From Antennarius striatus (Eukaryota > Chordata > Actinopteri > Lophiiformes > Antennariidae): a DNA stretch of 64,000 bases. The stretch is from positions 7,919,482 through 7,983,481 of the forward strand of contig NC_090781.1 in NCBI RefSeq assembly GCF_040054535.1, written 5' to 3'. The notes below the pieces were generated by a model. That model saw only the letters and a program-made list of their open reading frames with translations, was not told where the DNA came from and made no database searches. A program made the position numbers and the translations under genes. Below, in pieces: positions 40,889 to 62,035 of this stretch (positions are counted from its first letter, which is position 1; every line of letters begins with the position of its first letter).

Positions 40889-43800
40889 TCAACCAGCAAA
40901 CACTTGTGGTTGCAGCGGCGGGGGCAGCAGCTCGCTCTCCACGTTATCGGCGTCGATCGCTGACGATGCCGCGGACGTCGTCCCGCCGGCTGGGACTGCG
41001 TCAGCGGTGTTTTCTTTCTCTGGGGGAAAGCTCTCCAGAACGCTCTGCACCTTCTGCTCCACTTCATCGGTCCAGTCAATGAGGTCGCTCTCCAGCTGGC
41101 GAGCTTTCTCCATGACCCGCTCCTGCCTTTCACCGAGGCCCGTGAGCAGGTCGAGTCGTTTGTGGACCTGATTGAGAGCCGTGCCGCCCGGGGAGCAGGA
41201 GGACGGTCCAGGGGCCTGTGGCCAATGGGGCGACGCCTGGCCCGACATGTAGAGGTCAAACTCCTCCGAGCTCAGGTTCAGAGACTGGCCGTCCAGCTTC
41301 TCAATGAAAGCTACTGCACAGCACTGGGGAAAGACATTGAAAATATATCTCATCTTAATCTCTATGAATGTATATCAAGTGTTCCAGATTTATATACTAA
41401 TCTGGATCTGCTTGTAGGGGGTAATCTTTAAAGGGAGTGAGAGAGACAGACACACATAAGACTGTTATAAGACTCATCGAAGTGACATTCTTTTCTAAGA
41501 CAGGACACAAACGGAAGTCACTTTTTAAAATTTTTTTTATGAAACAGGGCTCGAAATTGCAACCATTGTGGTCGTATAATTTTTTATCAGTGCGACTATT
41601 AAATATATTTGGGAGCACTGGTGCGACTAGGGTGATGGTTCTGTCCGGACCCGTGACCACTCCATGATAAATTCACGAGAGTAGATTTTCTTGGCGCATT
41701 TTTACTTGCAGTTCGCGGCTACAGACGGCGGGCACTGCTCCTCCAGTTAATACGGTAGTAGCTCCACTCAGTTCAGCCAATCAGATCCTTTGTCTACCCT
41801 GAGCTGTCAGCGTACCAGGAAGTGAGACAGCTCGCTACCGCTGTGAGTTTACTGCTACAGCGGAGCACAGAAGAAGGGAGACAGCCTAGCTCCAAACAAA
41901 GGGAGGTTAACAAGGAAAACCGCTGGTTAACAGTAAGTGGACGAAATTTATGTTCATTCCTCCGTCAGGCAGTTCAAAACCATTTTACCTCATATGGTCT
42001 GAACACGTAGCATGAATTAAAAGTGGTAACATGAAGCTCCACTATGAAACAAAGCCCAGATCTTTTGCGCAGAAGTATCCCCTGAAGTCCGAGCTGAGGG
42101 CAAAATGACCAAGAAACATGCAAAAGAATGTTCACTAAAGGCATGGTGGAGTTTAGGGCAACATTAACATCTTTTAGTGATTTTTTAAAATACAAAACAA
42201 TCCAATAATAACCAAAATGGTTCAGTCCAGGTACCGGGCTGGCCTGACAGCGCACCACAATGCGCTATTTAAGCCACATCCAGGTACTGTCTCGGTTTGG
42301 CCCCTGACCCGGAGGCGGACCAACGCAGCATCCTCAGGTGAGCGTCTCTCATTTGTTTTGTGTGGATGTGGGGAAAATGCGTAGGTGCCGAGTGTGCACC
42401 CTGGAACGCACTACCGCGAGTTTGTTTGATGCAGACACGTGAGTGTGGACTTGCTGGAGAATGTGCGTGAAACAGTCTGAGCAGAACCGCGGTCCTGCCA
42501 GGAAACAATGAGAGCGCAGCTGCAGCTGCTCTCCTGGGCGAGGGAGAGAGGTGCGTGGAACGGAGATGGACGGAGCGTCTCTATCGCTCCGTCACTGCCT
42601 TGCTTTTGGGTAGGTGCTCCTAAAGTCTTTTCTGGTGCTACTAACTTCTAAATTTGAGAGCACCAGCGCTACCAAGAAAAAAAGTGAATTTCGAGCCCTG
42701 TGAAACATCTTTTTCTCCTGGAAAATTAAGAAATACATTAAGATACGTTACACAAAATCACATACTGATATAATTCTACCTTCTTAATATTGTAACGTTT
42801 AGTTTTCCCCTTAAATGTTTTTTGAGAGGATTGATTCCATGTAATTTTAGATGAGGGCATTTCTGGTACTGCTGAACTGTATTCAAACATTTTTTGAATA
42901 ATTTAATTTAATATTTACTGTAATTTAATTTAAATTGAATAATTTAACTTGAATAATTTAATTTAATATTTTAATAACTTAGCCTAATGATTGTCATTAT
43001 AAGAAAATGAAATTAATCAGCAACACAACGTCTTTTTTGATTTGTAAATTTGCCACTCTGGGTACACTCACAACAACAAACCGCACTCGTCTCGGATCGA
43101 GGACCCTCTCACCAGATTTGTGAAGTAGTATCCATCCTCTCCGGTCATGAGCCGGCTGGGGTTGCAGAAGCGAGTGATGTACTGGATGTTGGACTGCAGT
43201 CTGGGAGGATTTGCCTTCAGTACGATGTAGATGAGTGTAGGGAGGAAGTCGTCTGCAGACGCAGCCTCTTTCTTGCTGACTTTGATGGCGTTGAAGATGT
43301 GTTTGCTACAGCGGGTGATGCACGCTAACTTGTCCTTGGGCACCCGCTTTGAATCCATTTCAATCACATCTGTAATAATAAAGAGATTTGAGACGACAAA
43401 ACTCTTAGTATTAAATATCGTTGCTGGATATCTGACACCTGTCTGAAGAGGGTCTGAAGAACAACCCTGACCTGTGATAGCTTTGACTACACTGTCAGAC
43501 ACTTCAGGAATCTCCTCGTCCACGGGCACACACAGCATCTCGATTGTGACCCAGTGCAAGGCTCTAAAAAAGAAAGAACATCTGGAATTTCACCATTTTT
43601 AACTGCACATATGCTTTGCCGAGGATAAGTAATGTTTGCTCACCTGATTCTCTTCTGAATGGCTAAGTCTTTCTTCTCATCGTCTGTGGTCTCAGGACAG
43701 AACACTTCCTTATACAGACGGGTCATCATATACTTCTCTACTTCATCCATTACACTCTCCACTTGGTCTGATGAGCCTTGGAACAGAAGCACAGGGAGCA

Positions 43801-46653
43801 AACATGTAAAGACACACTACACTCTGTGTACGAATTGTAATGTTCACTATGAGCGTCTGATCTACCTTTGAATTGAGCCTGGAGCCGCTCAGACTGGTTC
43901 TGATAGAAGTCCTGCACACACTCCGACAGCTCATCAGCACCCATGTCCTGAAAAAAACCACATCAGTCTCAGCATAACTGACAGACTGATATATTTTGAC
44001 TAATTCCCGACTTTTTTAAAAATTTGTTAATGTAATTGAATGGTAATTTAAAAAGGAAAATAGTTAACTGCTAACTGAATTGCTGCAAACCTTCATTAAA
44101 GGGGATAAAAAAATCTTATTTTCACTTAAGGCAGAAAGTTGTTTGTTCTTAAAATGTTTTTGGAACACTGAGTTAATGTCAGCATTATGGATTGTAATGT
44201 CGGAAACAGAAGTATTTACTAATGAATTAAAACAATTTCAAAAAAGTTGGGGCGTTACTTTCCAAGCAAATAAAACTAGATGGAAATGATGGAAATCCTT
44301 TCTTCAGTCTAAAGGATTTAAAAAATCTTTCACAAAGACAACATACAACCTGTAATGTTGATTTATAAATTTATTTCTAATAAAAATTATCTGAATTTTT
44401 ATTAGAATTTTAAATGTTTGGACCGGTTCACGCTCACCACTGTGTTATATCACCTTCAATATCCATCACCATTATTGAGAGTGACACTAACTGCTGAAGT
44501 CTTCTTGTGTGTGTGTTCTGGATTGTATGTGTGTGAATAATCGTGAAAAAAAAAAAATCCTCATTGTGGGATTAGGAGAGGACTTTATTCTTCATAGAAT
44601 TATGGTACTCTATAAATATATAGCGACAAACTATTTATCTTAATATTTACGGTAATTTAAACGTTTATGAACCCTCCCCATACTGATATTAAACCATCTT
44701 CTGTGTGTATTACCTTTTCCCACACTCTTATTGACTGTTTAAAGTACTTTTGAGTAAATGAGAGTGAAAGACTCACAGAACGTAACACACTTCCGGATGT
44801 CGTATCATGTAACTGCCTACCAAAAATCCATAATGAGGTGAAATCGCACGTGTTGATCTGCAAATGCGCGAGGGATTACTGTATATTTCTGGGCAGAATT
44901 TCAGTGCTGAAGCTCTCACTATCTTTACTGGTGAATGAGTCTGGAGAAGATCCACCTTTATACTCAATCACAACACCATCACCTGCCACCAGGAAACCTT
45001 TTAACCCATTGAACTATTTTATCTGGTGCTTTTGAGCATTGTATTGTTGGCATGAATTTCAGAATATATTTGTTGATATTCAGTATGTATGTACTGTATA
45101 TATATATATATGAACAAAGTTCATTCAGTACAACTTTATTGTTTTACTGGTTTCAGTTGAGATAATGATCAAAAAAGGATGTAAATCTTTGTGTTTTGCA
45201 TTATTTATGTTTTGCAGAGATTCTCAACTTTTTTGGAATTGGGTTCGTAATAATTAATCAGTAAACTTGAAAAAACTTAAAACATAAAAAATATATAGAT
45301 AAACGCTATTGGACACAGAGCACAAACAAAATCTTTAACTTAAACTGAAACTGCAAACAGGTTATCGATTTAAATAGCTAGTCATGCATAAAACTTCTTT
45401 CAGACTCCTTTAAACCACAAACAAAGAAATCTATGATGAATAATCTGCTTTGGCTCACCCGCTTATAGACCATGCTCTCAGTGAAGGCCCGGCACTGCTT
45501 GAAGATCTCTCTGCCAGACTTCAGAGGCTTGAGGAAATCAATGAACTCTCGTGTCGCATGGTCACTGTCCACAGAGGAGTGTCGACCAGCAGAGGAGCTG
45601 GGGCTGGGGCTGGACTGTGCATCATATGGAACAGGATCTTGGAGAACACACTAAAATTAATGCTGTAAATTTACAGCAATTTCTCCAGGAAGGGCTGGAT
45701 CAACTATGACAACAGCAGCTAGCAGTGGCACATGCAGCAGCATGCCAAGATGTTTCATAGAATGAAGGTTGCTACTTTTTGGGGCAGTTGTCTTTGACCT
45801 GCTGCATTCTCTTCTAATTCTCCCAGTTCTCCCTTGGCAAACGCAGTAGTCGTGCTTTGCGCTTCTGTTAATCATCTTTAATCACACATATGGTAGTTTT
45901 AATGTGTTACAAAACTAGGGAAGTGGTTAACAAAGACAAAACTATTACGCAAATATGGTGATGACCTCATTCTGGTTTAGTTTCTTAATATATTTCCAGT
46001 AAAAGAGGCTATCAGAATCAGTTCTGCAAAAATCCAGGCGTAAACGTTCATCAACACAAGCAGATATCATGAAAAAAAACAACATGCGCATCTCAATGTT
46101 TCACAAAATATAAGAAAATAGACTACTGTCTCTTTGAGTTGAATACACACATTTATCTTTACCTTTTTTTGGTGGTGTTTTTGAAGACGGAGTGAAGAAC
46201 TTTGTAACTGTGTGTACTTTGCTGGATTTCTCCTTAGTTTTTCTTTCCTCAAACTTGCTGAAAGGTGTAATGGTCGACTGTGATTGGACCTTCTGATGTC
46301 TACTTGCATAAGCTTCCTCTTCCTCTCTCTGCAGCCTGAAGAGAAGAGACAATTCGACTGTAATCGGTGTCAAATGGGCACAGGGGCAAGAGCAACCCGA
46401 CCAAAGGAGGTGGTAAGAGAACAGGACAACGTGTGGCTTTTGGGAATACTTGTACACCAGATATCAAGAGACAAACATACTTCTCAGCAAGTGCCCAGTC
46501 GTCTTGAATCTGTTTCTGCTTTTCTCGTTGGTTTTCCTCTCGCCAGCACTTGGAGCACAGACCCTGCCAAGCAGTGTTGCCGTAGAAACCACATCCTTTC
46601 TTGCAGAGAAGTTCTGATTGGTCCACATGGATGCCGCGCCGCTGGCTATTCAT
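40889..46653 (-). CDS. rabgef1: RABGEF1 (Rabex-5), Rab5 guanine nucleotide exchange factor
   Basis: Rabex-5 activates Rab5 on early endosomes with rabaptin-5 and binds ubiquitin. Eight coding exons: 46653-46481, 46335-46163, 45637-45459, 43947-43866, 43776-43644, 43563-43472, 43369-43113, 41323-40889. All are in phase; 507 residues (human about 490). An A20 zinc finger has Cys17, Cys21, Cys33 and Cys36. A ubiquitin-interacting helix lies at about 47-70 ([20 protein letters not shown]). The helical bundle and VPS9 domain run from about 180 to 400, with [39 protein letters not shown] (catalytic Asp about 318) and [13 protein letters not shown]. The rabaptin-binding coiled coil and C-terminal [12 protein letters not shown] follow. 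The acceptor of exon 3 is atypical (CTCCAAG) but is the only one keeping frame. Intron 7 contains a hAT element. Confidence 0.95.
41545..42700. mobile_element. Non-autonomous hAT-like element, 1.16 kb (RABGEF1 intron 7)
   Basis: Ends are exact inverted repeats, CAGGGCTCGAAATT at 41545 and AATTTCGAGCCCTG ending at 42700. Each side is flanked by TGAAA (41540-41544, 42701-42705), which may be what remains of an 8-bp hAT duplication. Subterminal GAGCACTGGTGCGACTA and its diverged complement TGGTGCTACTAACTT-type sequence extend the symmetry. No transposase frame is recognised inside. The interior has CpG-rich stretches around 42230-42600. Confidence 0.8.
44600..44883 (-). mobile_element. Tigger-like MITE copy 1 (RABGEF1 intron 3)
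   Basis: Ends in GCGAGGGATTACTGTA, the complement of TACAGTAATCCCTCG, and shares the interior block CGTTTATGAACCCTCCCCAT with copies at 49.5 and 58.1 kb. The left end is truncated or degenerate. The CAGT-AATCCCTCG end with a TA target is typical of Tc1/mariner-Tigger-derived MITEs, which is the basis for the family name. Confidence 0.7.
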
Positions 46654-49040: not shown

Positions 49041-50834
49041 ATGGCAGGTAAGACTTCACCCCAATAAGAAATAATAAGAGGCGCGTTGGCGACCCGCCGG
49101 CGCGCCTGGTAGTTTTTATCTCCGTGGAGATAATCGGAATGAAAAGTTTGAGCGCAGCAGCGGATCAGCAGTAGAGCGGGTTGTTCCAAGATCGGAGGTT
49201 CGATTCCCCCCCCCCCCCCCCCCTCAAAAAACAAAAAAACACCCGGAGTGTGAGCTGACAGTGGGGAGACTCCGCTCACCTCCGTAGCACTGCCGAGACA
49301 CCCTTGAGCAAGGCGCCGTCCCCCTTACAAGTTGCTCATTTGGCCGCAACAAGCTGCCAGTCAGAGACTGCAACATCCCGCGACACCCCTGAATTCAACA
49401 TTTGACCCTGACCTACACATTTTTGTGCCTCTGATTTCCTGAAAATGTTGCTTTTTGTTTTGTGATTATATCATCAGGTTTCAGAGACGTGTACCTAAAA
49501 AGGTATACAGTGCGCCGTCTCAGTTAATGCGTTCCAGGAACCAAACGCGATTAACGAAATCAGTGATGAGCGACAAACTATTTATGTTAATATTTACAGT
49601 AATTTAAATGTTTATAAACCCTCCCCATACTGACATTACACCGCCTTCTATCTGTTATCTTTCCTCCCACTCTAATACACTGTTTGAAGCGCTTTTGTGT
49701 CTCACGGAAGTCCGAGACTCACAGAACGTAACGTACTTCCAGATGCCGTCAGCCAATAGAATGCCTTCCAACAATCCTCGATGAGTACAAAAGTTGAAAT
49801 TTGATCTTGACCTAGTTTTCTCAAGGTCAAGGTCATCTCATTCTCATCCTATTTGCCGCCCCAGTCATGTGCTTTTTTTTTCATCTATCTGCAACGGTTG
49901 TGAAGATATTTGGTGGACGTATGAATGGACGAACACACAAACACTGACAATTACATTGTTACAGTTCTGTTGGTGTGTTCATGAAAAACATTGAGTCGGT
50001 TTCTAATTGTAAACGATTGACTGTAAACGAAATACCCGGAGGTGAGCTAACAGTGGGAGGTGTCAGCTCATCTCCGGAGCACTGCCGAGGCACCCTTGAG
50101 CAAGGTGCCGTCCCCTTTACAAATTGCTCATTTGAGGCGCACCAAGAAGGAGCTGCCTGCCACTCTACCTCCCCTGCATGCCTACAGGCCCCTTTGTGTG
50201 TGTGTGTGATACAGGGGCCTGTACTCACATACATGTATGCATGCGTTTGTAATCAGTAGCTAGAGTGTGCTTCTTAATTTCCCTTCGGGGATCAAACCAG
50301 TATATAAAATTAAAAAAAAAAATTGTAAAGTCAATTTAATGTTTTGGGACAGAAAACTAGAGTTTATTAAATTAACCTCAAACACCACCGATTAAAATCA
50401 TATTTTAACCTTTAAAAGTCAGTGGTAATGACTCAAATTTTCTTGATCATCAGTCTAATCAGAATCATGAGACAACTGGTTAGGGTTGTAAAATATTCCT
50501 GACTCAGTGTCATCTTCAAGAAAAGAGTGGATGTATGAATTCTTTCTTTTTTTGTCTTCGCTTAATCTCAGACGAGCGGCTCATCAGTGTGAGGCCCAAA
50601 TTTGTGAGCAAGGTGTCCAAACCTCTGATTGGTCAGCTCCTAGATGACCTTCTCCTGGATCGTGTGGTGACCAGAGGGGAGAAAGACTACGTACTGGATA
50701 AGGACAACCTCAGAGAAGAAATGGCACGCCGTCTCATTGACACAGTGACGCCAAAGGGGGACACAGCCAGTCAGAGGATGATCGATCACATTCAGCTTAG
50801 AGACCCAATGTTCTTCTCTGACCTCGGTCTGTAA
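49041..50834 (+). CDS. CARD-only protein, caspase-1 CARD relative (two coding exons)
   Basis: Exon 1 is ATGGCAG (49041-49047) with donor GTAAGA. Exon 2 is 50572-50834, after acceptor CTTAATCTCAG, ending DLGL then TAA. The product is 89 residues: M-A-D-E-R-L-I-S-V-R-P-K and a full death-fold CARD (GQLLDDLLLDRVVTRGEKDY, ARRLIDTVTPKGDTASQ). The exon is nearly identical to the CARD exon of the caspase gene 3 kb downstream, but that exon splices on after LSFG whereas this one stops at the equivalent point. No protease exon lies before the next gene's promoter. Family knowledge: CARD-only relatives of caspase-1 in primates (CARD16, CARD17, CARD18) act as decoys in inflammasome assembly. A similar role is inferred. 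Candidate polyA signals at 51302 and 51748. Confidence 0.75.
49130..49430 (+). mobile_element. tRNA-derived SINE copy in CARD-only intron 1
   Basis: Contains a tRNA-like head (AGTAGAGCGGGTTGTTCC, B box GGTTCGATTCC), a C-run, and the body TGCCGAGACACCCTTGAGCA AGGCGCCGTCCCCC, a phrase repeated in the second copy at 50040. This body is common to a fish SINE family whose name I am not sure of. Confidence 0.65.
49507..49790 (-). mobile_element. Tigger-like MITE copy 2
   Basis: Shares AGCGACAAACTATTTATGTT, TAAACCCTCCCCATACTGAC and CTCACAGAACGTAACGTACT with copies at 44.6 and 58.1 kb. Its ends are less well kept (left ACAGTGCGCCGTCTC; right AATCCTCGATGAG). Confidence 0.65.
50040..50305 (+). mobile_element. 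5'-truncated SINE, second copy
   Basis: Starts inside the body (GTGAGCTAACAGTGGGAGG), repeats CCGAGGCACCCTTGAGCAAG and ends TTAATTTCCCTTCGGGGATC. It lacks the tRNA-like head. It lies in the same intron as the longer copy. Confidence 0.65.
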
Positions 50835-50849
50835 TGTGACCCCCCTGGT

Positions 50850-52357
50850 GAGCTCAGATACTTTACGTTAGATGCTCTCATCCGTTTTTGGAATTAGAGA
50901 TGGTAGAATGTGCTCGAGCTCAGTAGAACTCGATCATACAAACTTTTAAAAGTCTGGCTAGATATTTCTTTATTTTAGACGAATCCTGTAAACAAACAAA
51001 AAATGGTAACCATGTGCAGGTTAATGTTTCAGAGAGCTTTAGCATTTAGCACGACGACACTTCTGGGACTGACTTATAACAATTATCATCCATCTGTTGT
51101 CTTTACCTCCTCAGAGCCTGGATACCCAGACGGAGCCCAGAGAAGGTCGTCTCCCTGTGAGATGACATTCATATCCAAGTCCCATCACGTCCCCCCATGG
51201 ATACAGTGTTCATTTTAATCATGTAAAACAACAAAACATTTTAGAAAAACAAAACATCTCATTTTTATCTGCGCTTTCTTGTTCCTATGTGAATTGTTGA
51301 CAATAAACATCAGCCGATGTTGTTTTTGCACATGAGGAGGAGGGTTATTCCTGGACACTCATTGCCTCTGCTGATACATTCTGGACAGAAGAAATGACAG
51401 ATGATGCTCATCGTTGGTAAACATCTGAATTTTAAAGCCATTCTGGGTTTTTTGGTTTTACTACACATGTAAAAATATATAAAAAAATATGTACTTTTAC
51501 AACAAAGGAATCCATTACAATGTCTTAACAAATAGTGGCCTTATGAATCAAGTCATGTCTAGAATATAAAATGCATAATCATGCAGTTTCTATAGCATTT
51601 AGTAGATGTATTTTTATGCTATGTCAGTGATGGGAGGCTAATTTACTGTTGACAATCAGCGTTTATTGAAAATATCATGTTTTCTTCTGTATTGATTTCA
51701 ACTCTCTGCTGTATGACCAGGATTGTTTTATGTGTTGTAAGAATACAAATAAAACTTCCTTGCATACATGTCATATCCTTTCAGTGTAAGACGGACAAGG
51801 ACAATAAAACAAGATTCAAACAGTAGTTTTAATGTCACATTGCAAAGGGGTAAAACAATTTAAACCGACACTAACATTGTTATTTCATTGTGTGATTATA
51901 AAATGACAAATAAAGCTTATCTTAAAAGGTAAGTGTATTTTAAGGTTTGACAGGATTTCACCAGTAGTTATGTAAAGTGTAATTATATCTCATTCATTGA
52001 GTTCCTTTCAGATCATTTATTTTGGTCAGTGATTGGGTATGATGTCAAAACAAAACTGATCAAAAATGATTTAAAATGCAAAAATGAAGAAGCCATGTTG
52101 ACCATGGTTCAATTATTGTTTGTGGTTCGTTAACATCCTCTCACCTGGACTCCTGTTATTCCACACAGACTGTGACGTCAAGCCGTGACGTCTGCTGTCA
52201 GACGGACAGGTTCAGCTCCACCGCGAGAAGCAGGAAGAAGCCTCCACCCGCGCGCGTGACTCCGCCCCTCAGTCCCAAACTGCACGCGCCGCCCGCCAGA
52301 GGTGCCTTCAGGTCCGACGGAAAGAAAGACTTCAGCTTCCAGCTCCAACTCTGACAA
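50850..52357 (+). other. CARD-only 3' region and caspase promoter
   Basis: A possible 3' untranslated exon of the CARD-only gene starts after CTCCTCAG (about 51115) and ends at polyA signals 51302 or 51748. The last 200 bp (52150-52357) are CpG-rich and directly precede the caspase start codon, as in a promoter and 5' UTR. No protease-type exon is present. Confidence 0.45.
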
Positions 52358-55300
52358 ATGGCGGGTAAGTCGTCTAAAAAAATTAAAAAAAACTTTGTAA
52401 AGAGCCGTAATGGAGGTGATGGCGTCACAATGTAGGAGGAACGAGTTGCTCCTGTGTGAGCGGTGTGTGAAAAAAAAAGGCGCGGGCAATGATGGAAGCC
52501 GGAAACAGGGTTTGTCCCCGTTAATCATAAAGTTGCTGGGGGATTGTTTTGCCTCTGGTTGTATGCTAGGCCACCATCACCTCCCCCCTAGTTTAGCTAA
52601 AGGTTAAAACACCAAAAGGTTTTCTTTACGCCGTTAAAGTGATAAAATATTCAGTGACGTGTCAACAGCACCACCCTGTGGTAACAGCACGACGTGCCAT
52701 TAACTCTTCAGCACTGGTTTGGCCCAAAAGTGACATTTTTTGTTGTTTGTATGTCTTTCTCTTCCCAATAAATCAGTCCGTTAAAGGCTAGGTATATGGA
52801 ATTTAACCAGTAATTTTATTTCATCTTTATTTTCTAAATTCCTTAATGCCTGTCATTGGAAGTGTATAGAAATGTAGATTTTCACTGTCAACACACAAAA
52901 CCTGATGGGGTCAAAAATGATCCAATTGACTCCCATTATAACCATATATTTTTCATATACTATAAGCATATGTATATATTTATATATTGTATATTATATA
53001 TATTACTATGTGTCAAAGGTGTCTTATGTTCTGTGTTGAATGAAGAACTTGTGCTCAGTCAATGGTTGATCTAATTCACATATTTTTTTGCTTATGTTAT
53101 GGTTTGTTTTTTGAAATGTGAGTTCCTGTTTAGACGAAGGTAGAAAAGATGATTGCCAAGAAGTTGTCCACAAAAATATTGTGTCAACGTGATTATATTG
53201 TAATTTGGACTTCACGAATAAATGTAATTTTAAAAATAAAAAAAATCCCCCTGTTTTTTTTTAGTTTGATAAAAGTTAAGCGATTAGATGTTTCTTTGTT
53301 CAGAAAACGCACAGTATTATTGAAAATCCTCTACGTGAATCTCTTGGATTTTGTGTCAACGTGATTATTTTGTAATTTGACTTTTATGAATAAACGTGAT
53401 GTTAAAAATCAAACACCCCCCCCCCCACTCCTTGCGTTGTGGACGTAACTAAATATTTCTTGAATTAAAATTTTGAATCGGACTGAGTGTTGCTGTTGAA
53501 AACAATCTTTTCTCAATTTAATATCATTTAAACACACATGTCAGAAGTATTTTTATTTTTTTCTATTTTTGTGATAGCACCCACAGGATGGAAAGTTATA
53601 GAAACATTGCTAGTGTGGCAAAAGGTTAATCGCCAACACTGAGGTTTTTGTTTTTGTATTTTCTCCTATAGAGGACAAGCTCAACAGTGTGAGGCCCAAA
53701 TTTGTGGACAAAGTGTCCAGACCTCTGATTGGTCAGCTCCTAGATGACCTTCTCCTGGATCGTGTGGTGACCAGAGGGGAGAAAGATTACGTACTGGATA
53801 AGGACAACCTCAGAGACGAAATGGCACGCCGTCTCATTGACACAGTGACGCCAAAGGGGGACACAGCCAGTCAGAAGATGATCGATCACATTCAGCTTAG
53901 AGACCCAATGTTCTGCTCTGACCTGGGTCTGTCCTTTGGTGAGCTGAAATATTCAAGAGACACCTTCATCCTATTTTGGTTCAAGGTGGTTTTACTTTAA
54001 AGTTGTCTGGACTTCAGGTTGAATATGAAAAAAAATATTTTGTTGTTTCCAGCTCCTGAACCCAAGAAGCAACAAGAATGGTCGACTTCACTCATCCCTA
54101 CCACAACTAATTTCTGGAAGAAGAATCAAAATGATCCAGACGTTAGTCGTGATATCTGAATGAAATAACTCACATAGTCTAACTTACAGAATTGTCTTCA
54201 GGTTTTTAAAGTTTATCCTGTCTCTTTTTAAATTTGTTCTTTAGATTTATCCTGGGACCAAAGAGTCCATTGGGAATCGTGTGGCCCTCCTAATCACTAA
54301 CATAAAGTTTGCTAATAAGAAAGGTAACAGAAATGGTGCTGAGAAAGACGAGCAGAACATGAAAAACCTGCTCACAGGCTTGGGATATGAGGTTGTGAAT
54401 CACACAGACCTCACAGGAGAGGTACTTTATAAAAGGCATATTAAAAAAATGTTCTTTCTGGTGATACTGTATTGTAATCTGACTTATTGGTTTCTTTCAC
54501 AGGAAATAGATAAAGCCATAATTGAGTTCTCTAAACACCCAAAGCTCGAAGGGACAGACAGCGTGGTGGTGGTTATCATGTCTCATGGAAAACTGGGTTT
54601 TGTCTACGGTGTCAACCATTTTCCGAACAAACCAGATGTGTTCCCCACCGACAACATTTACAAACATTTGGGCTCAGAGAAATGTCCAGCACTGCTAGAC
54701 AAACCCAAGATCATCATCATCCAGGCCTGCAGAAGAGGTGATTCTCATCTGCTATCCACAACACACACCTGTAGATGAAGAGAAATCTTTCTTAAATCGA
54801 GCAAAGCTCTCCGGCTTTGTGTTCAAAGTGCCCCACATGTGTTTCAGAGGAGTTGGGAGGAGCAGTGTGGCGGGAGTTTCGTTTTTCTTAAGGACAGGAG
54901 ACAGTGTAAAATACAAGATATTTATTTGTCAATTCAAATCATGTTTAGGTTGAGTAGCAGTACAATAATATCAATAGGTTGAGTATGAGTCCAATAGCAT
55001 AATCGATGATATTGACAGACAGACAGGTTCAACAAACAGACAAGTTCAACAAATACTTATCTAAGCATGATGAGAGCTCTGGGGACGATGAAAAAGTCCT
55101 CCGGTCTGTTGTTGCAGAGTATTCTGGGTACTAAAAAACTTCAAGTACAAACTAAAACATGGATCACATCTCTTTTTATACTCTAAAGGCGTAACTATGG
55201 GAGGTGTGAATCAGTTGTTTAACTTGATTCCCTTTGCTCTCCACTAATCTTTCCCCCAGTTTCAGTAGGTACATCATGACCTCAAGAAGTTAGCAGAGAC

Positions 55301-57700
55301 ATCTAGTCGACAGTTTCACATGGCTGATGACATAACGTAATCAGTAATGCATACAAAATTATTAGCAGATACTGAAATTTACGCAAACGCTTCTAAAAAC
55401 AGATTAGATTCTTGCAGAATCTTTCATGACCTAGAGACTTCCTGGGGCCGTTTCTCCCAAGTGCTGAAAGATTTGACACATACTCTAGATTTTTGGGTCA
55501 AGAAATGATATTATTTTATTCTAATATTATTGTATTATTTTATTGTATTAAAAACTTTCCACCACAGCAGTAATCGAGGAAGATGCCCCAATGCCAGATG
55601 TGCAATCTGATGATATGGATCAGCCAGGCTTATCTCCATCTGCTGATGACGAAGACATGGAGGACGACAGTTATCGTATTGTGCACAAAGAAAAAGACTT
55701 CATCTGTCTTCTGAGCTGCACCCCAGGTGGGTTACAGTTGATGTGCATTTTAGGGATGAGCGATTACACCACTATCTGTATCTGTTCAATCATCTAAATT
55801 ATCTGTGTCCGTATCTGTACTCGGAATGGGCGGGACTTAAACCGGAAGTCGATGTGGTTTGCCCAGAAATAGGTGGGGCTTAAATCAGTACATTATTTTG
55901 AGTCTGAAATTGATAAGGATTGATCATAAGTTGCTATTTTATTGTTTATTTTAAAACTATTTGCAAAACGGCCTCAAAATTGACATTTAAATCAATGTTT
56001 TTGATCACAAGAGTAAGAGAAATATTTACAGAACAAGTTTTATATGAACTCAGAACATGAATATTCTTAAGTATATGGATGAATATTTACAGAACAGCCT
56101 CAGAATTGAGATTAAATGCTTTTGATCACAATAGTCAAGGAACTGTTTACAGAACAAGTTTTTTATAGACTCAGAACATGAAGGGCATTAATCAGTACAG
56201 CGTATGCAATAGGAAATTATTAACTACAAAGTATGCATGAACAAGAATTGTCATACTCAACACAACCAATTTTTTTTCTTTTTTTCATTTTTAAAATTTT
56301 TTTAAAGCGAAAGAAAAAGAGAAATAGAGAGACAGCATGTGCGTGTATGTGCGCTATGTGTTAACAGTTAAAATTGCTATACAAATTATTGATTTGAACT
56401 GAAGTGAGAACGTGTCAAACTAAGAGCAGAGATTCTCTGTTACATCCGTCTACGTCAGTGATCCCCAATCACCGGGTTGCGACCCGGTACTGGGTCGCGG
56501 GACATTAGGTACCAGGCAGCACAGAACCTTTGACTTTCTTTTTTTTAATTGATTTTTATTGATTAGTTTTATTTTGAAAAGTGACGTCTGTGTGGAATGA
56601 CGCACAGACGAATGCATACGTCTGTCCCACTTGACAGGTCTCGGTCACGTGACAGGTTACCAGCCATTACTCCTAAATTAAGTGCCCATAACTGCCCCAG
56701 TGTTCTGGATTAAAGTCAAGGCAGATTATCCTGAGGTCACCCAAAAAGTTTTGAAAATCCTGTTTCCATTTCCAACCTCCTGTCTTTGTGAAGTGAGATT
56801 TTCTGCAGTGACCGTAAAAATGAAACTGCATCTTCCGTTACCCCTAGATCAGAGGTCCCCAACCACTAATTCTCATTATTGTAATTATTATTGTTTAATT
56901 GACTTGTTCACCCGTTTATTGGAAATGAGCAGTATTTCTCCTACATCATCAAAGCAGTCACTTGAATCAAGTTTTTAATATAATTATTTCTTATAATTTT
57001 TTCATTTACAGAGATGTTGATTATCAGTTTCTGAAAAAAAGATTGTTTATTGTCTGCTGACGTCTGCATTTTACTTCAAACCACTGCAGATGATTTATTA
57101 TTAGACTACAGCTTTCCTGGCGTCATTAACGATTATCGATCAAATGTCTGAATATTTAAAGTTTTGTATTTTATATTATTTAATTATTTTTTACCACAAT
57201 TGATGCATTTGTTTTAACAAGAAATGGGATCTGTAGGGATCCGGAGATCCTTTGAGAAAAATCGTCTCCGTCTCAGACAAAAACTGACAAATCTGGTCTA
57301 GGTAGAAAACCTAATCTAGCTTTTAAAGTAACTTAGATCAAGACTGGCATTAGTACTGATGTATTTTCTGTTTTTGAGTTTCTTGCAGACACTGTGTCAT
57401 ACAGACATGCGATCCGTGGTGCTGTTCTGATCCAGTATATCGTTGAGGTATTCAACACCTTCTCTCACAGTGATCACCTGGAGGAACTCTTCAGAAAAGT
57501 ACGTTTTGGACAGGAAACATGCATTTATAATCAGAGGCAGCAGTAATAACAGCACTACTGTTGATATGACATTATTCACTCTTTCAACCACACAGGTCCT
57601 GCAGCGCTTCGAAGGTTTTGCCACTGGCCAATGCACACAGATGGCATCCAAAGACAGATGCACTATAACAAAGCACTTCTACTTCTACCCAGGCCTCTGA
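52358..57700 (+). CDS. Caspase-1-like inflammatory caspase with CARD (complete, 8 exons)
   Basis: Coding exons: 52358-52364, 53672-53938, 54053-54141, 54245-54421, 54503-54737, 55568-55726, 57389-57498, 57596-57700. The predicted protein has 382 residues, about the length of fish caspase-1 (caspa). A CARD spans 1-91 (MAEDKLNSVRPKFVDK); a linker and prodomain follow to 121. The p20 subunit starts IYPGTKESIGNRVALLITNI. The catalytic dyad is His208 in VVIMSHGKLG and Cys256 in IIIIQACRR. An acidic inter-subunit loop (EEDAPMPDVQSDDMDQPG) offers Asp cleavage sites. The p10 subunit has DTVSYRHAIRGAVLIQYIVE, LEELFRKVLQRFEGF and ends KHFYFYPGL. Odd point: the active-site motif is QACRR where the family has QACRG, so activity is uncertain. 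It is downstream of, and closely related to, the CARD-only gene. PolyA signal at 58668. Confidence 0.9.
53165..53425. repeat. Imperfect tandem duplication in caspase intron 1
   Basis: The phrase TTGTGTCAACGTGATTAT plus TTGTAATTTG and GAATAAA-GT occurs at about 53180-53230 and again at about 53350-53400. The C-run near 53416 and T-run near 53255 occupy the equivalent position in each unit. Confidence 0.6.
54738..55567. other. Caspase intron 5, repeat-like filler unidentified
   Basis: About 830 bp without coding potential. Internal short repetition (GACAGACAGACAGGTTCAAC-type, 55014-55045) and a mobile-element-like texture were noted, but no termini or family could be defined. Confidence 0.3.
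55727..57388. other. Caspase intron 6, repeat-bearing
   Basis: Contains an imperfect duplication of about 125 bp (phrases TTTTGATCACAA, TTTACAGAACAAGTTTT and ACTCAGAACATGAA occur at about 55998-56060 and 56120-56180) and hAT debris from 56456. The remainder is AT-rich. Confidence 0.5.
56456..56860 (+). mobile_element. hAT fragment with transposase C-terminus
   Basis: The left end CAGTGATCCCCAATCACCGG followed by GTTGCGACCCGGTAC is a typical hAT terminus. At about 56740-56830 the translation VLKILFPFPTSCLCEVRFSA matches the hAT C-terminal dimerisation motif (LPF-TxYLCExxFS). Another terminus-like CAGAGGTCCCCAACCAC at 56850 lies in direct, not inverted, orientation, so the copy is internally deleted or overlaid by another. 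Confidence 0.6.
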
Positions 57701-57769: not shown

Positions 57770-58500
57770 TTTATAATCCCTCCATGATAGAGCCAGATTT
57801 TATAATGCAATACAGTATATCACAACATTTTCTTTACTTTAAAGTACTTAAAGTTTGAAATAATGGATCATTTTTATTAATTTGGATCCAACAGCTGATT
57901 TAATCGTGAATATGTTCAATATTGAATGATTGTGTGAGTTTTGATAAGCTGCCTGCAAAATTATGAAATCATTTTGATTCTTAATGGCCTCCCCAGCCAA
58001 CATGTGCAAAAAATTTTTTATAATGCAATATATTATGTCACAATTTTTTAAAATTTCAAATATGTCTGACATTGTTTAAGTTTGAAGTACAGTAATCCCT
58101 CGCACATTCATGCATCAACACGCGCGACTTCACCTAATCGTGGACTTTCAGTAGGTAGTCACGTGATACCTTACGCACATTCTATTGGCTGACGCTATCC
58201 AGAAGTGCACTACGTTCCGTGAGTCTCAGAACGCAGCGCACTTCCGTGAGACACAAAAGTGCTTTAAACAGTTGATAAAAGTGTGGGAAAAGGTCATACA
58301 GATAGGTGGTTTAATATCACAATGGGGAGGGTTCATAAACGTTTAAATTAACGTAAATAATAAGATAAATAGTTAGTCATTATAGTCTAATTCGTTATTC
58401 GCGTGTGGTTCCTGAAACGCATTAACCGCAAGTAAAGAGGCACACTTTAATGGATCATTTCTGTTAATTTGGCCTCCCCAGCCAACAAGTGCCAAACCTA
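57770..58500. repeat. Tandem duplication downstream of the caspase, split by a MITE
   Basis: The phrases TTTATAATGCAATA (57799, 58017), AATGGATCATTT(T/C)T-TTAATTTGG (57862, 58450) and GGCCTCCCCAGCCAACA (57985, 58473) recur. Two or more units of roughly 220-240 bp are arranged head to tail, and the second is interrupted by the MITE at 58090. Confidence 0.6.
58090..58446 (+). mobile_element. Tigger-like MITE copy 3, best preserved
   Basis: Begins CAGTAATCCCTCGCACATTC immediately after a TA. The interior carries GTGAGTCTCAGAACGCAG and AATGGGGAGGGTTCATAAAC, and the end reads CGCATTAACCGCAAGTAAAG. Compared with copies at 44.6 kb and 49.5 kb it is inverted. No transposase. Confidence 0.7.
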
Positions 58501-59205: not shown

Positions 59206-59348
59206 TGGACAGCTGATGTTTGAGTCACAGGACGTTAAAGTACAACCACTTTAAACCAAAATAGGATGAAGGTGTTTTCTTGAATATTTCAGCTCACCAG
59301 AGGACAGACCCAGCTCAGAGCAGAACATTGGGTCTCTAAGCTGAATGT

Positions 59349-59420
<72 letters not shown>

Positions 59421-59690
59421 CTTTAATAATCCCGGAGGTGATCGATCATCTTCTGACTGGCTGTGTCCCCCTTTGGCATCACTGTGTCAATGAGACGGCG
59501 TGCCACTTCTCTGAGGTTGTCCATATCCAGTACATAGTCTTTCTCCCCTCTGGTCACCACACCATCCAGGAGGTCATCCAGGAGCTGACCAATCATAGGT
59601 TTGGACACCTTGCTCACAAACTCTGGCCTCACACTGTTGAGCTTGTCCTCTATAGGAGAAAATACAAAAAACAAAAGTTCATTGTTAGCA
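59206..59690 (-). pseudogene. Third CARD exon, inverted relic with LINE insertion
   Basis: The minus-strand exon 59649-59298, with flanking intron, repeats the caspase CARD exon: the acceptor side TTTTCTCCTATAG, EDKLNSVRPEFVSKVSKPM, GQLLDDLL, ARRLIDTVMPKGDTASQKMI, and the donor side GTCCTCTGGTGAGCTGAAAT. Relative to the caspase it has two small in-frame losses (LLLDRV to LLDGV; LREEMARR to LREVARR), and an 88-bp retroelement tail splits it after the ATCGATCA segment. No start exon or protease exons accompany it. Confidence 0.8.
59351..59438 (-). mobile_element. LINE 3' tail with (GATA)n in the CARD relic
   Basis: On the minus strand the insert reads CCTCCGGGATTATTAAAGTA and then about 17 TATC units. 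It is flanked by a TGA on each side of the exon sequence. The GGGAT-TAAAGTATCTATC pattern is the standard 3' end of a fish LINE family; only the last few tens of bases were inserted. Confidence 0.75.
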
Positions 59691-61574: not shown

Positions 61575-62035
61575 ATTTATTCAACAAAATGTGGAGAACT
61601 TTTCTGTTGCGTTTACGCCTTCCGTCCACACGACAACGCAGATATCCGGAACGAAAACACAACTTTTTAAAACCGCTGGCCGAGGAGGACTTTTTTTTAA
61701 ACGCTGGGTCTGCATTGTCGTGTGGACGGTGTATCCGCAACTTTTTAAAAACGCTGACGTCTTGCCTGCGACGAAAACCTCTGTGACGTCATATTTATGG
61801 GCCTGTGTGTTGTGACAACAAAACACGGAGGATTCCTATTGGATAAAATTTGAGTCAATACTGCCACCACATGGTTTTGCATGCTTGTAGCCGTCTTCGA
61901 AAACGCACTGGTGCGTTTACATGTGGACAGAGATTTTTTTGAAAACGCTGTCGTGTGGACGCGAATTGTTTTCGGTGCGTTTTTAAAAAGTTTTCAAAAA
62001 AATCTGTCATCGTGTCGATGGGGCCTTAATGTGAC
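61575..62035. mobile_element. Non-autonomous DNA element rich in AAAACGC motifs
   Basis: The stretch repeats TTTTTAAAAACGCT, CGTGTGGACG and complementary forms (GTCCACACGACAACGC at 61622; GTCGTGTGGACGCG at 61948), and ends GTGTCGATGGGGCCTT. The layout of complementary CGTGTGGAC blocks with a GGGGCC end fits a fish MITE family. Precise ends and duplication were not found. Confidence 0.5.

What the first reader, a model, noticed from the sequence alone, without database searches (positions are those of the whole stretch)
49041..50834. A CARD-only gene beside caspase-1: a possible fish counterpart of the CARD16/17/18 decoys
The CARD exon is almost identical to that of the adjacent caspase, yet it ends in TAA exactly where the caspase exon continues (LSFG) and no protease exon follows. 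It keeps its own start exon, splice sites, promoter-like flank and polyA signals, so it looks like a gene rather than debris. In primates, CARD-only relatives of caspase-1 arose separately and dampen inflammasome assembly. If expressed, this would be a convergent invention of the same device. That it acts as a decoy is inference.
Basis: partly seen in the sequence, partly recalled or inferred. Interest (0 to 1): 0.78.

Follow-up and report, generated by a model that had tools for sequence, protein, structure and literature searches.

The report
Frogfish CARD-only gene beside caspase-1
In the striated frogfish a truncated copy of the inflammation protease caspase-1 encodes only its docking domain, much as in primates; it may tune inflammation, but that it is switched on and acts has not been shown.

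Summary
Two exons (49041-49047, 50572-50834) encode an 89-residue CARD ending in TAA, 5' of an eight-exon caspase-1 gene. The genome matches Antennarius striatus (striated frogfish), and public records already hold the identical protein as 'caspase recruitment domain-containing protein 18-like'.

What is new here is its history. It is an old, truncated tandem copy of caspase-1: a decayed linker exon survives downstream, no catalytic exon does. The CARD core is 98% identical to caspase-1's, the adjoining introns only 61-62%, and sites switch partner along the exon: the mark of gene conversion, as described for primate CARD16/17 (PMC11383037, passages). So near-identity is not itself evidence of function; dN/dS is uninformative.

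It is not unique. Other teleosts have caspase-1-type CARD-only proteins, in five other species on a contig of the same length as caspase-1's. They do not form one clade (AU p 6e-16), and in 3 of 9 species that could be compared they pair firmly with their own caspase.

Best reading: a CARD16-like modulator of caspase-1 assembly. Expression and function are untested; the main rival is a relic kept intact by conversion.

The parts
49041..49047 (+). CARD-only gene, coding part of exon 1 (ATGGCAG|gtaaga; encodes MA plus one base)
   Evidence: in-frame join gives the 89-aa protein, identical to NCBI protein P0001
50572..50834 (+). CARD-only gene, exon 2: CARD, ending in TAA at 50832-50834
   Evidence: Pfam CARD 44.3 bits; AlphaFold2 pLDDT 92.2; 96% identical to caspase CARD exon over 254 nt
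50835..50847 (+). remnant of the longer exon end after the stop (TGT GAC CCC CCT G), then donor-like gtgagc from 50848
   Evidence: alignment of the three copies; 9 nt absent from copies 2 and 3; 48 of 116 fish caspases read S-C/S-G-P/Q here
51319..51408 (+). decayed caspase linker exon belonging to the CARD-only copy
   Evidence: tblastn 12 of 120 caspases at E <= 0.01, best 5e-5
52358..52364 (+). caspase-1 gene exon 1 (ATGGCGG|gtaag)
   Evidence: spliced model (382 aa) equals NCBI P0002 'caspase a-like isoform X2 [Antennarius striatus]' (381 aa) apart from one residue at the exon 6 acceptor
53672..53938 (+). caspase-1 gene CARD exon (copy 2)
54053..57700 (+). caspase-1 linker, p20 and p10 exons: 54053-54141, 54245-54421, 54503-54737, 55568-55726, 57389-57498, 57596-57700
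   Evidence: Peptidase_C14 169.5 bits for P0002
59302..59650 (-). third CARD exon copy, inverted and dead: two 3-nt deletions and a (TATC)n-tailed insertion

Best explanation
This is a CARD-only paralogue of caspase-1 in the striated frogfish. A tandem copy of caspase-1 lost, or never had, its catalytic exons and gained a stop codon right after the CARD. The CARD core has since been homogenised by gene conversion with the neighbouring caspase CARD, so the two stay matched (the relic exon and the conversion pattern are shown; the order of events is inferred). Most likely mechanism (inferred): the 89-residue protein enters the CARD filament that ASC seeds for caspase-1, as human CARD16 or ICEBERG does. 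It occupies sites without bringing a protease, and so raises the threshold for caspase-1 activation. Net inhibition rather than promotion is the less certain step, because human CARD16 has been reported to do both.
For: Intact two-exon gene, identical to an NCBI protein named CARD18-like. Confident CARD model; best solved matches human caspase-1 CARD filament (TM 0.95) and ICEBERG (TM 0.85); best sequence matches among solved chains ICEBERG, 6j52 'Caspase recruitment domain-only protein' and human caspase-1 CARD. 80 of 89 residues equal those of the partner caspase CARD, including D27, which a review reports as needed for CARD16 filaments (PMC7555848, passages). An ASC-type CARD (best solved match ASC, E 1.3e-12) with a PYRIN match about 2 kb away on the same strand exists on C9. 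Truncated-duplicate origin: relic linker exon. Conversion: codons 21-86 98% identical, dS 0.023, against 61-62% in the adjoining introns; 0 of 20,000 shuffles reach the run of shared sites. Same pattern in primates (PMC11383037, passages). CARD-only relatives in other teleosts.
Against: No expression data were available here. dN/dS is not low: whole CARD NG86 dN 0.053, dS 0.078, and YN00 0.057 against 0.062; core 0.020 against 0.023, so purifying selection is not shown. Gene conversion alone could keep a dead exon looking intact; the dead third copy is also 95-96% identical in the core. PolyA and promoter signals are at chance level. R45, the other CARD16 filament residue named in the review, is aspartate in both frogfish proteins. 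The neighbouring caspase itself has an altered active-site motif (QACRR), so the pathway may work differently in this fish.
Confidence: 0.55

Rival explanations
1. A non-functional relic. The truncated duplicate has no role; gene conversion from the neighbouring caspase keeps its CARD exon looking intact, and the database model follows from homology.
For: High identity is confined to the exon core; the adjoining introns have decayed to 61-62%. A dead third copy shows the same core identity. dN/dS near neutral. No promoter or polyA signal above chance. The linker exon is decayed.
Against: The start codon, exon 1 donor and exon 2 acceptor lie outside the converted core and are still intact although the flanks have diverged to about 60%. 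Similar CARD-only proteins recur in other fish, one clade spanning five cyprinodontiform genera.
Confidence: 0.3
2. A promoter of assembly rather than a decoy. Being almost identical to the caspase CARD, the protein co-polymerises and helps nucleate caspase-1, as oligomerised CARD16 was reported to do.
For: 90% identity and the same residues at positions 27 and 45 as the caspase CARD. The review reports CARD16 inducing IL-1beta secretion, with activation in HeLa cells and inhibition in THP-1 cells (PMC7555848, passages).
Against: An in vivo study cited in PMC11383037 (passages) found that all three primate CARD-only proteins inhibit. Nothing here measures direction.
Confidence: 0.08
3. An upstream first exon for caspase-1: exon 1 of the copy is spliced to the caspase CARD exon, giving a second promoter and the same protein N-terminus, with the CARD-only exon skipped.
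For: Both exon 1 copies end in the same phase, so the splice would read MAED... in frame. Sea bass caspase-1 transcripts are alternatively spliced, though downstream of the active site (PMC3511578, passages).
Against: Exon 2 of the copy has its own intact acceptor and would have to be skipped. NCBI has a separate CARD-only protein.
Confidence: 0.05

Closest known systems
Primate CARD16/CARD17/CARD18 (COP/pseudo-ICE, INCA, ICEBERG)
   Same: CARD-only, derived from caspase-1, next to caspase-1, CARD matched to caspase-1 by gene conversion (CARD16/17, PMC11383037, passages), similar length
   Different: The primate genes are dated to the primate ancestor (PMC11383037, passages); the frogfish CARD groups with its own caspase (100/99). 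Expression, binding and inhibition are reported for the human proteins and not here.
Other teleost CARD-only caspase-1 relatives (NCBI CARD16-like in Toxotes; CARD18-like in Girardinichthys, Betta, Epinephelus, Thunnus (partial), Halichoeres; consecutive locus tags in Perca fluviatilis and Zoarces)
   Same: Same domain, similar length; in Perca, Zoarces, Toxotes, Symphorus and Halichoeres on a contig of the same length as a caspase-1 gene's
   Different: Not one clade (AU p 5.9e-16). The frogfish copy is specific to its lineage or has been overwritten by conversion.
Iridovirus CARD-only proteins (grouper iridovirus, frog virus 3, cod iridovirus, lymphocystis disease virus 3)
   Same: Single CARD of similar size; best viral fold matches are cod iridovirus and lymphocystis disease virus 3; solved chain 6j52 is a CARD-only protein (that it is from frog virus 3 is recalled)
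   Different: Viral; 28% identical in the two fold alignments; the frogfish gene is a host duplicate with an intron
[quoted passage not shown]
   Same: Fish caspase-1 products proposed to compete through their CARD (PMC3511578, passages)
   Different: Splice forms of one gene that keep the p20 domain, not a separate CARD-only gene

Membership tests
Caspase-1-derived CARD-only proteins (COPs) | One CARD of the caspase-1 type and nothing else | tested here: met
   89 aa; Pfam CARD only; fold closest to caspase-1 CARD and ICEBERG
Caspase-1-derived CARD-only proteins (COPs) | No catalytic domain encoded downstream | tested here: met
   stop at 50832-50834; only a decayed linker exon before the caspase start
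Caspase-1-derived CARD-only proteins (COPs) | Locus beside caspase-1 | tested here: met
   stop codon 1.5 kb upstream of the caspase start codon, same strand
Caspase-1-derived CARD-only proteins (COPs) | Expressed as mRNA and protein | not testable with these tools
   no RNA-seq at hand; an NCBI protein record alone
Caspase-1-derived CARD-only proteins (COPs) | Binds caspase-1 or ASC and changes IL-1beta output | not testable with these tools
   no assay
Orthologue of primate CARD16, CARD17 or CARD18 | Shares a CARD-only ancestor with them | tested here: inconclusive
   groups with its own caspase at 100/99, 36% identical to human ICEBERG and caspase-1 CARD in fold alignments, which argues against; but no primate row was in the tree and conversion can erase such a signal. 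The published dating to the primate ancestor (PMC11383037, passages) also argues against.
CARD16-type filament former | D27 and R45 as in human CARD16 | tested here: inconclusive
   D27 present; position 45 is Asp in both the CARD-only protein and the frogfish caspase CARD
Pseudogene | Lesion inside the remaining coding frame or splice sites | tested here: not met
   frame, start, donor and acceptor intact; this does not exclude a silent relic

The most novel reading that the evidence does not exclude
Teleost caspase-1 loci repeatedly bud off CARD-only genes, some held across several fish genera, and keep them matched to their own caspase by gene conversion: the same evolutionary device as in primates, with fish iridoviruses carrying the viral version.
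Probability: 0.45. Interest if true: 0.72.

Novelty: new member of a known kind. Interest (0 to 1): 0.52.

Why it matters
The review consulted here describes CARD-only caspase regulators as specific to humans and higher primates and absent from rat and mouse (PMC7555848, passages). If fish make the same kind of gene repeatedly, it becomes a recurrent solution to controlling inflammasomes, open to experiments in fish, and it offers a host counterpart to the CARD-only proteins of fish iridoviruses. The frogfish locus also shows how the stop may have arisen and how conversion keeps the domain matched.

Tried and rejected
PolyA and promoter evidence: counts at chance level, so dropped. dN/dS as a test of function: rejected as uninformative because of conversion. 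Viral contig scan with the CARD alignment: 340 stretches matched a pattern, 0 confirmed. First protein search with the single CARD found only the gene's own record, 1 hit among 2 candidates; the alignment search gave 156 hits, 120 listed, of which I chose 36 by eye for the tree (mostly complete start, no run into intron sequence; two carry N-terminal extensions); the choice is subjective, and some rows may be partial models or isoforms (for example P0126, named an isoform). Caspase rows in the tree: 50 of the 120 listed (458 hits). Idea that unnamed row P0180 is an anglerfish gene: dropped, its best identity is to other fish caspases. A p10-like match at 61773-61889 (one query, E 8.6e-4) was left as probable chance. 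Papers on filament interfaces: PMC4420773 and PMC4856535 are not held. A trout paper holding '...domain-containing protein 16-like' proved to mean an ankyrin-repeat protein.

Full report
Identity of the source. The window lies in a 548.4 Mb, 42-contig genome. Its two caspase-related proteins match NCBI proteins of Antennarius striatus at 100% (P0001, P0002), and the published A. striatus assembly is 548.56 Mb (PMC11192929, abstract and passages). The species is a percomorph of the order Lophiiformes.

The observation. The CARD-only gene joins ATGGCAG (49041-49047) to 50572-50834 and encodes 89 residues ending at TAA 50832-50834. The public record names the same protein 'caspase recruitment domain-containing protein 18-like', so the gene is already annotated. 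The neighbouring caspase-1 has eight coding exons from 52358 to 57700 and both CARD and protease domains. A search of the whole genome with the CARD-only protein found three matches at E <= 0.001, all in this cluster: copy 1 (the CARD-only gene), copy 2 (the caspase) and copy 3, an inverted fragment near 59.3-59.65 kb. Copy 3 has two 3-nt deletions and is split by an insertion with a (TATC)n tail.

How it arose. Tblastn of 120 fish caspases finds no catalytic exon between the stop and the caspase start, but does find a decayed linker exon at 51319-51408 (12 of 120 at E <= 0.01). The copy was therefore once longer than a CARD exon. After the stop, copy 1 reads TGT GAC CCC CCT G and then gtgagc. 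Fish caspases mostly continue LGL with Ser (83 of the 116 in which the position was found), and 48 of 116 read S-C/S-G-P/Q. Copies 2 and 3 lack 9 nt here. So the stop is best read as a base change in a Ser codon of a full-length exon end, and the 9-nt loss as an event shared by copies 2 and 3 (inference; no fish DNA outside this genome was available).

Gene conversion. In the adjoining stretches of intron (47-78 aligned nt) copies 2 and 3 are 81-82% identical, and copy 1 is 60-62% identical to either. In codons 21-86 all three are 95-98% identical, and copies 1 and 2 are closest (195 of 199 nt). Partner-sharing sites cluster: a run of ten sites shared by copies 1 and 2 without a 2-3 site was reached in 0 of 20,000 shuffles. 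dS between copies 1 and 2 is 0.226 in codons 1-20 and 0.023 in codons 21-86. Selection on the protein would not hold synonymous sites at 2% beside introns at about 39% difference, so conversion is the simplest account. The primate study reports the same for CASP1 with CARD16 and CARD17, and predicts that it keeps their binding matched (PMC11383037, preprint, passages). The cost is that identity and dN/dS no longer test function (whole CARD dN 0.053, dS 0.078).

Other fish. An alignment search limited to short proteins gave 156 matches, of which the best 120 are listed. Seven of those 120, the frogfish's own included, carry NCBI names CARD16-like or CARD18-like. In Perca fluviatilis and Zoarces viviparus the CARD-only and caspase locus tags are consecutive, and in these two and in Toxotes, Symphorus and Halichoeres both are listed with contigs of equal length, probably the same contig. 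In a tree of 36 chosen CARD-only rows and 50 of 120 caspase CARDs, the label changes 19 times, at least 6 forced by well-supported branches. Nine species have a row in both sets. In three (frogfish, Perca, Zoarces) the CARD-only row pairs with its own caspase (100/99, 100/94, 100/99); Labrus does so only weakly (86/35); in the other five (Toxotes, Symphorus, Dicentrarchus, Halichoeres, Epinephelus lanceolatus) it does not. The Zoarces protein is 93 of 95 identical to its caspase, so a recent copy or a partial model is possible there. A clade of CARD-only proteins from five cyprinodontiform genera has support 100/96. Holding all CARD-only rows together is rejected (AU p 5.9e-16). With 89 columns the tree is coarse and its bootstrap had not settled; conversion can mimic repeated origin. 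Five unnamed rows (P0123, P0142, P0180, P0189, P0209) run from exon 1 residues straight into the CARD on contigs of about 0.96-1.7 kb, as spliced transcripts or retrocopies would (inference).

How it may work. The predicted structure is confident (pLDDT 92.2), closest to the human caspase-1 CARD filament (TM 0.95) and ICEBERG (TM 0.85). The nearest viral folds are CARD proteins of cod iridovirus and lymphocystis disease virus 3. Grouper iridovirus CARD has been proposed to mimic human CARD-only proteins (PMC4457926, passages). The genome has an ASC-like CARD on C9 with a PYRIN match about 2 kb away on the same strand. Human precedents differ: INCA caps filaments and ICEBERG commingles (PMC8403095, passages), while CARD16 inhibits or promotes by context (PMC7555848, passages). 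Because the frogfish protein is 90% identical to its caspase CARD, mingling is more likely than capping (inference). That it dampens activation is inference.

What is in print. Searches for CARD-only with fish, teleost or zebrafish, for CARD18-like, for the -16-like and -18-like protein names, and for CARD16, CARD18, COP1, ICEBERG or teleost in pairs listed no paper whose title or abstract describes such host genes in fish; two searches listed only 20 of 33 and 25 of 223 papers. Only CC-licensed papers were searched, and most hits were seen as listings only.

Verdict. A real, already annotated gene model; a new member of a known kind of regulator; its history of truncation and conversion is the main gain. 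Function and expression are open.

Noticed in passing
window 54503-54737 (end of the exon): The frogfish caspase-1 active site reads QACRR; 118 of 120 listed fish caspases read QACRG, and one Sebastes copy (P0116) reads QACRK. The SHG and QAC residues (catalytic His and Cys, recalled) are present, so activity may be altered rather than lost.
   Followed up: partly
window 59302-59650, minus strand: Third, inverted CARD exon copy broken by an insertion with a (TATC)n tail flanked by a short repeat (ATCAC); its adjoining introns are 81-82% identical to those of the caspase.
   Followed up: partly
window 43728-43805: A caspase model of Cebidichthys (P0091) begins with 26 residues matching this stretch (E 1e-6), close to a VPS9-domain ORF on the other strand (zf-A20 and VPS9 ORFs here suggest RABGEF1; the name is recalled), hinting that the two genes are neighbours there too.
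   Followed up: no
window 49523-49763 and 58178-58426: Inverted repeat at 77% identity, one copy in the CARD-only intron and one 3' of the caspase gene, probably a transposon.
   Followed up: no
proteins P0166, P0169, P0182: A second type of CARD-only protein with an RxKL(V/I) start and a GLPV end forms its own clade (100/99) in Epinephelus, Perca flavescens and an unnamed source.
   Followed up: partly
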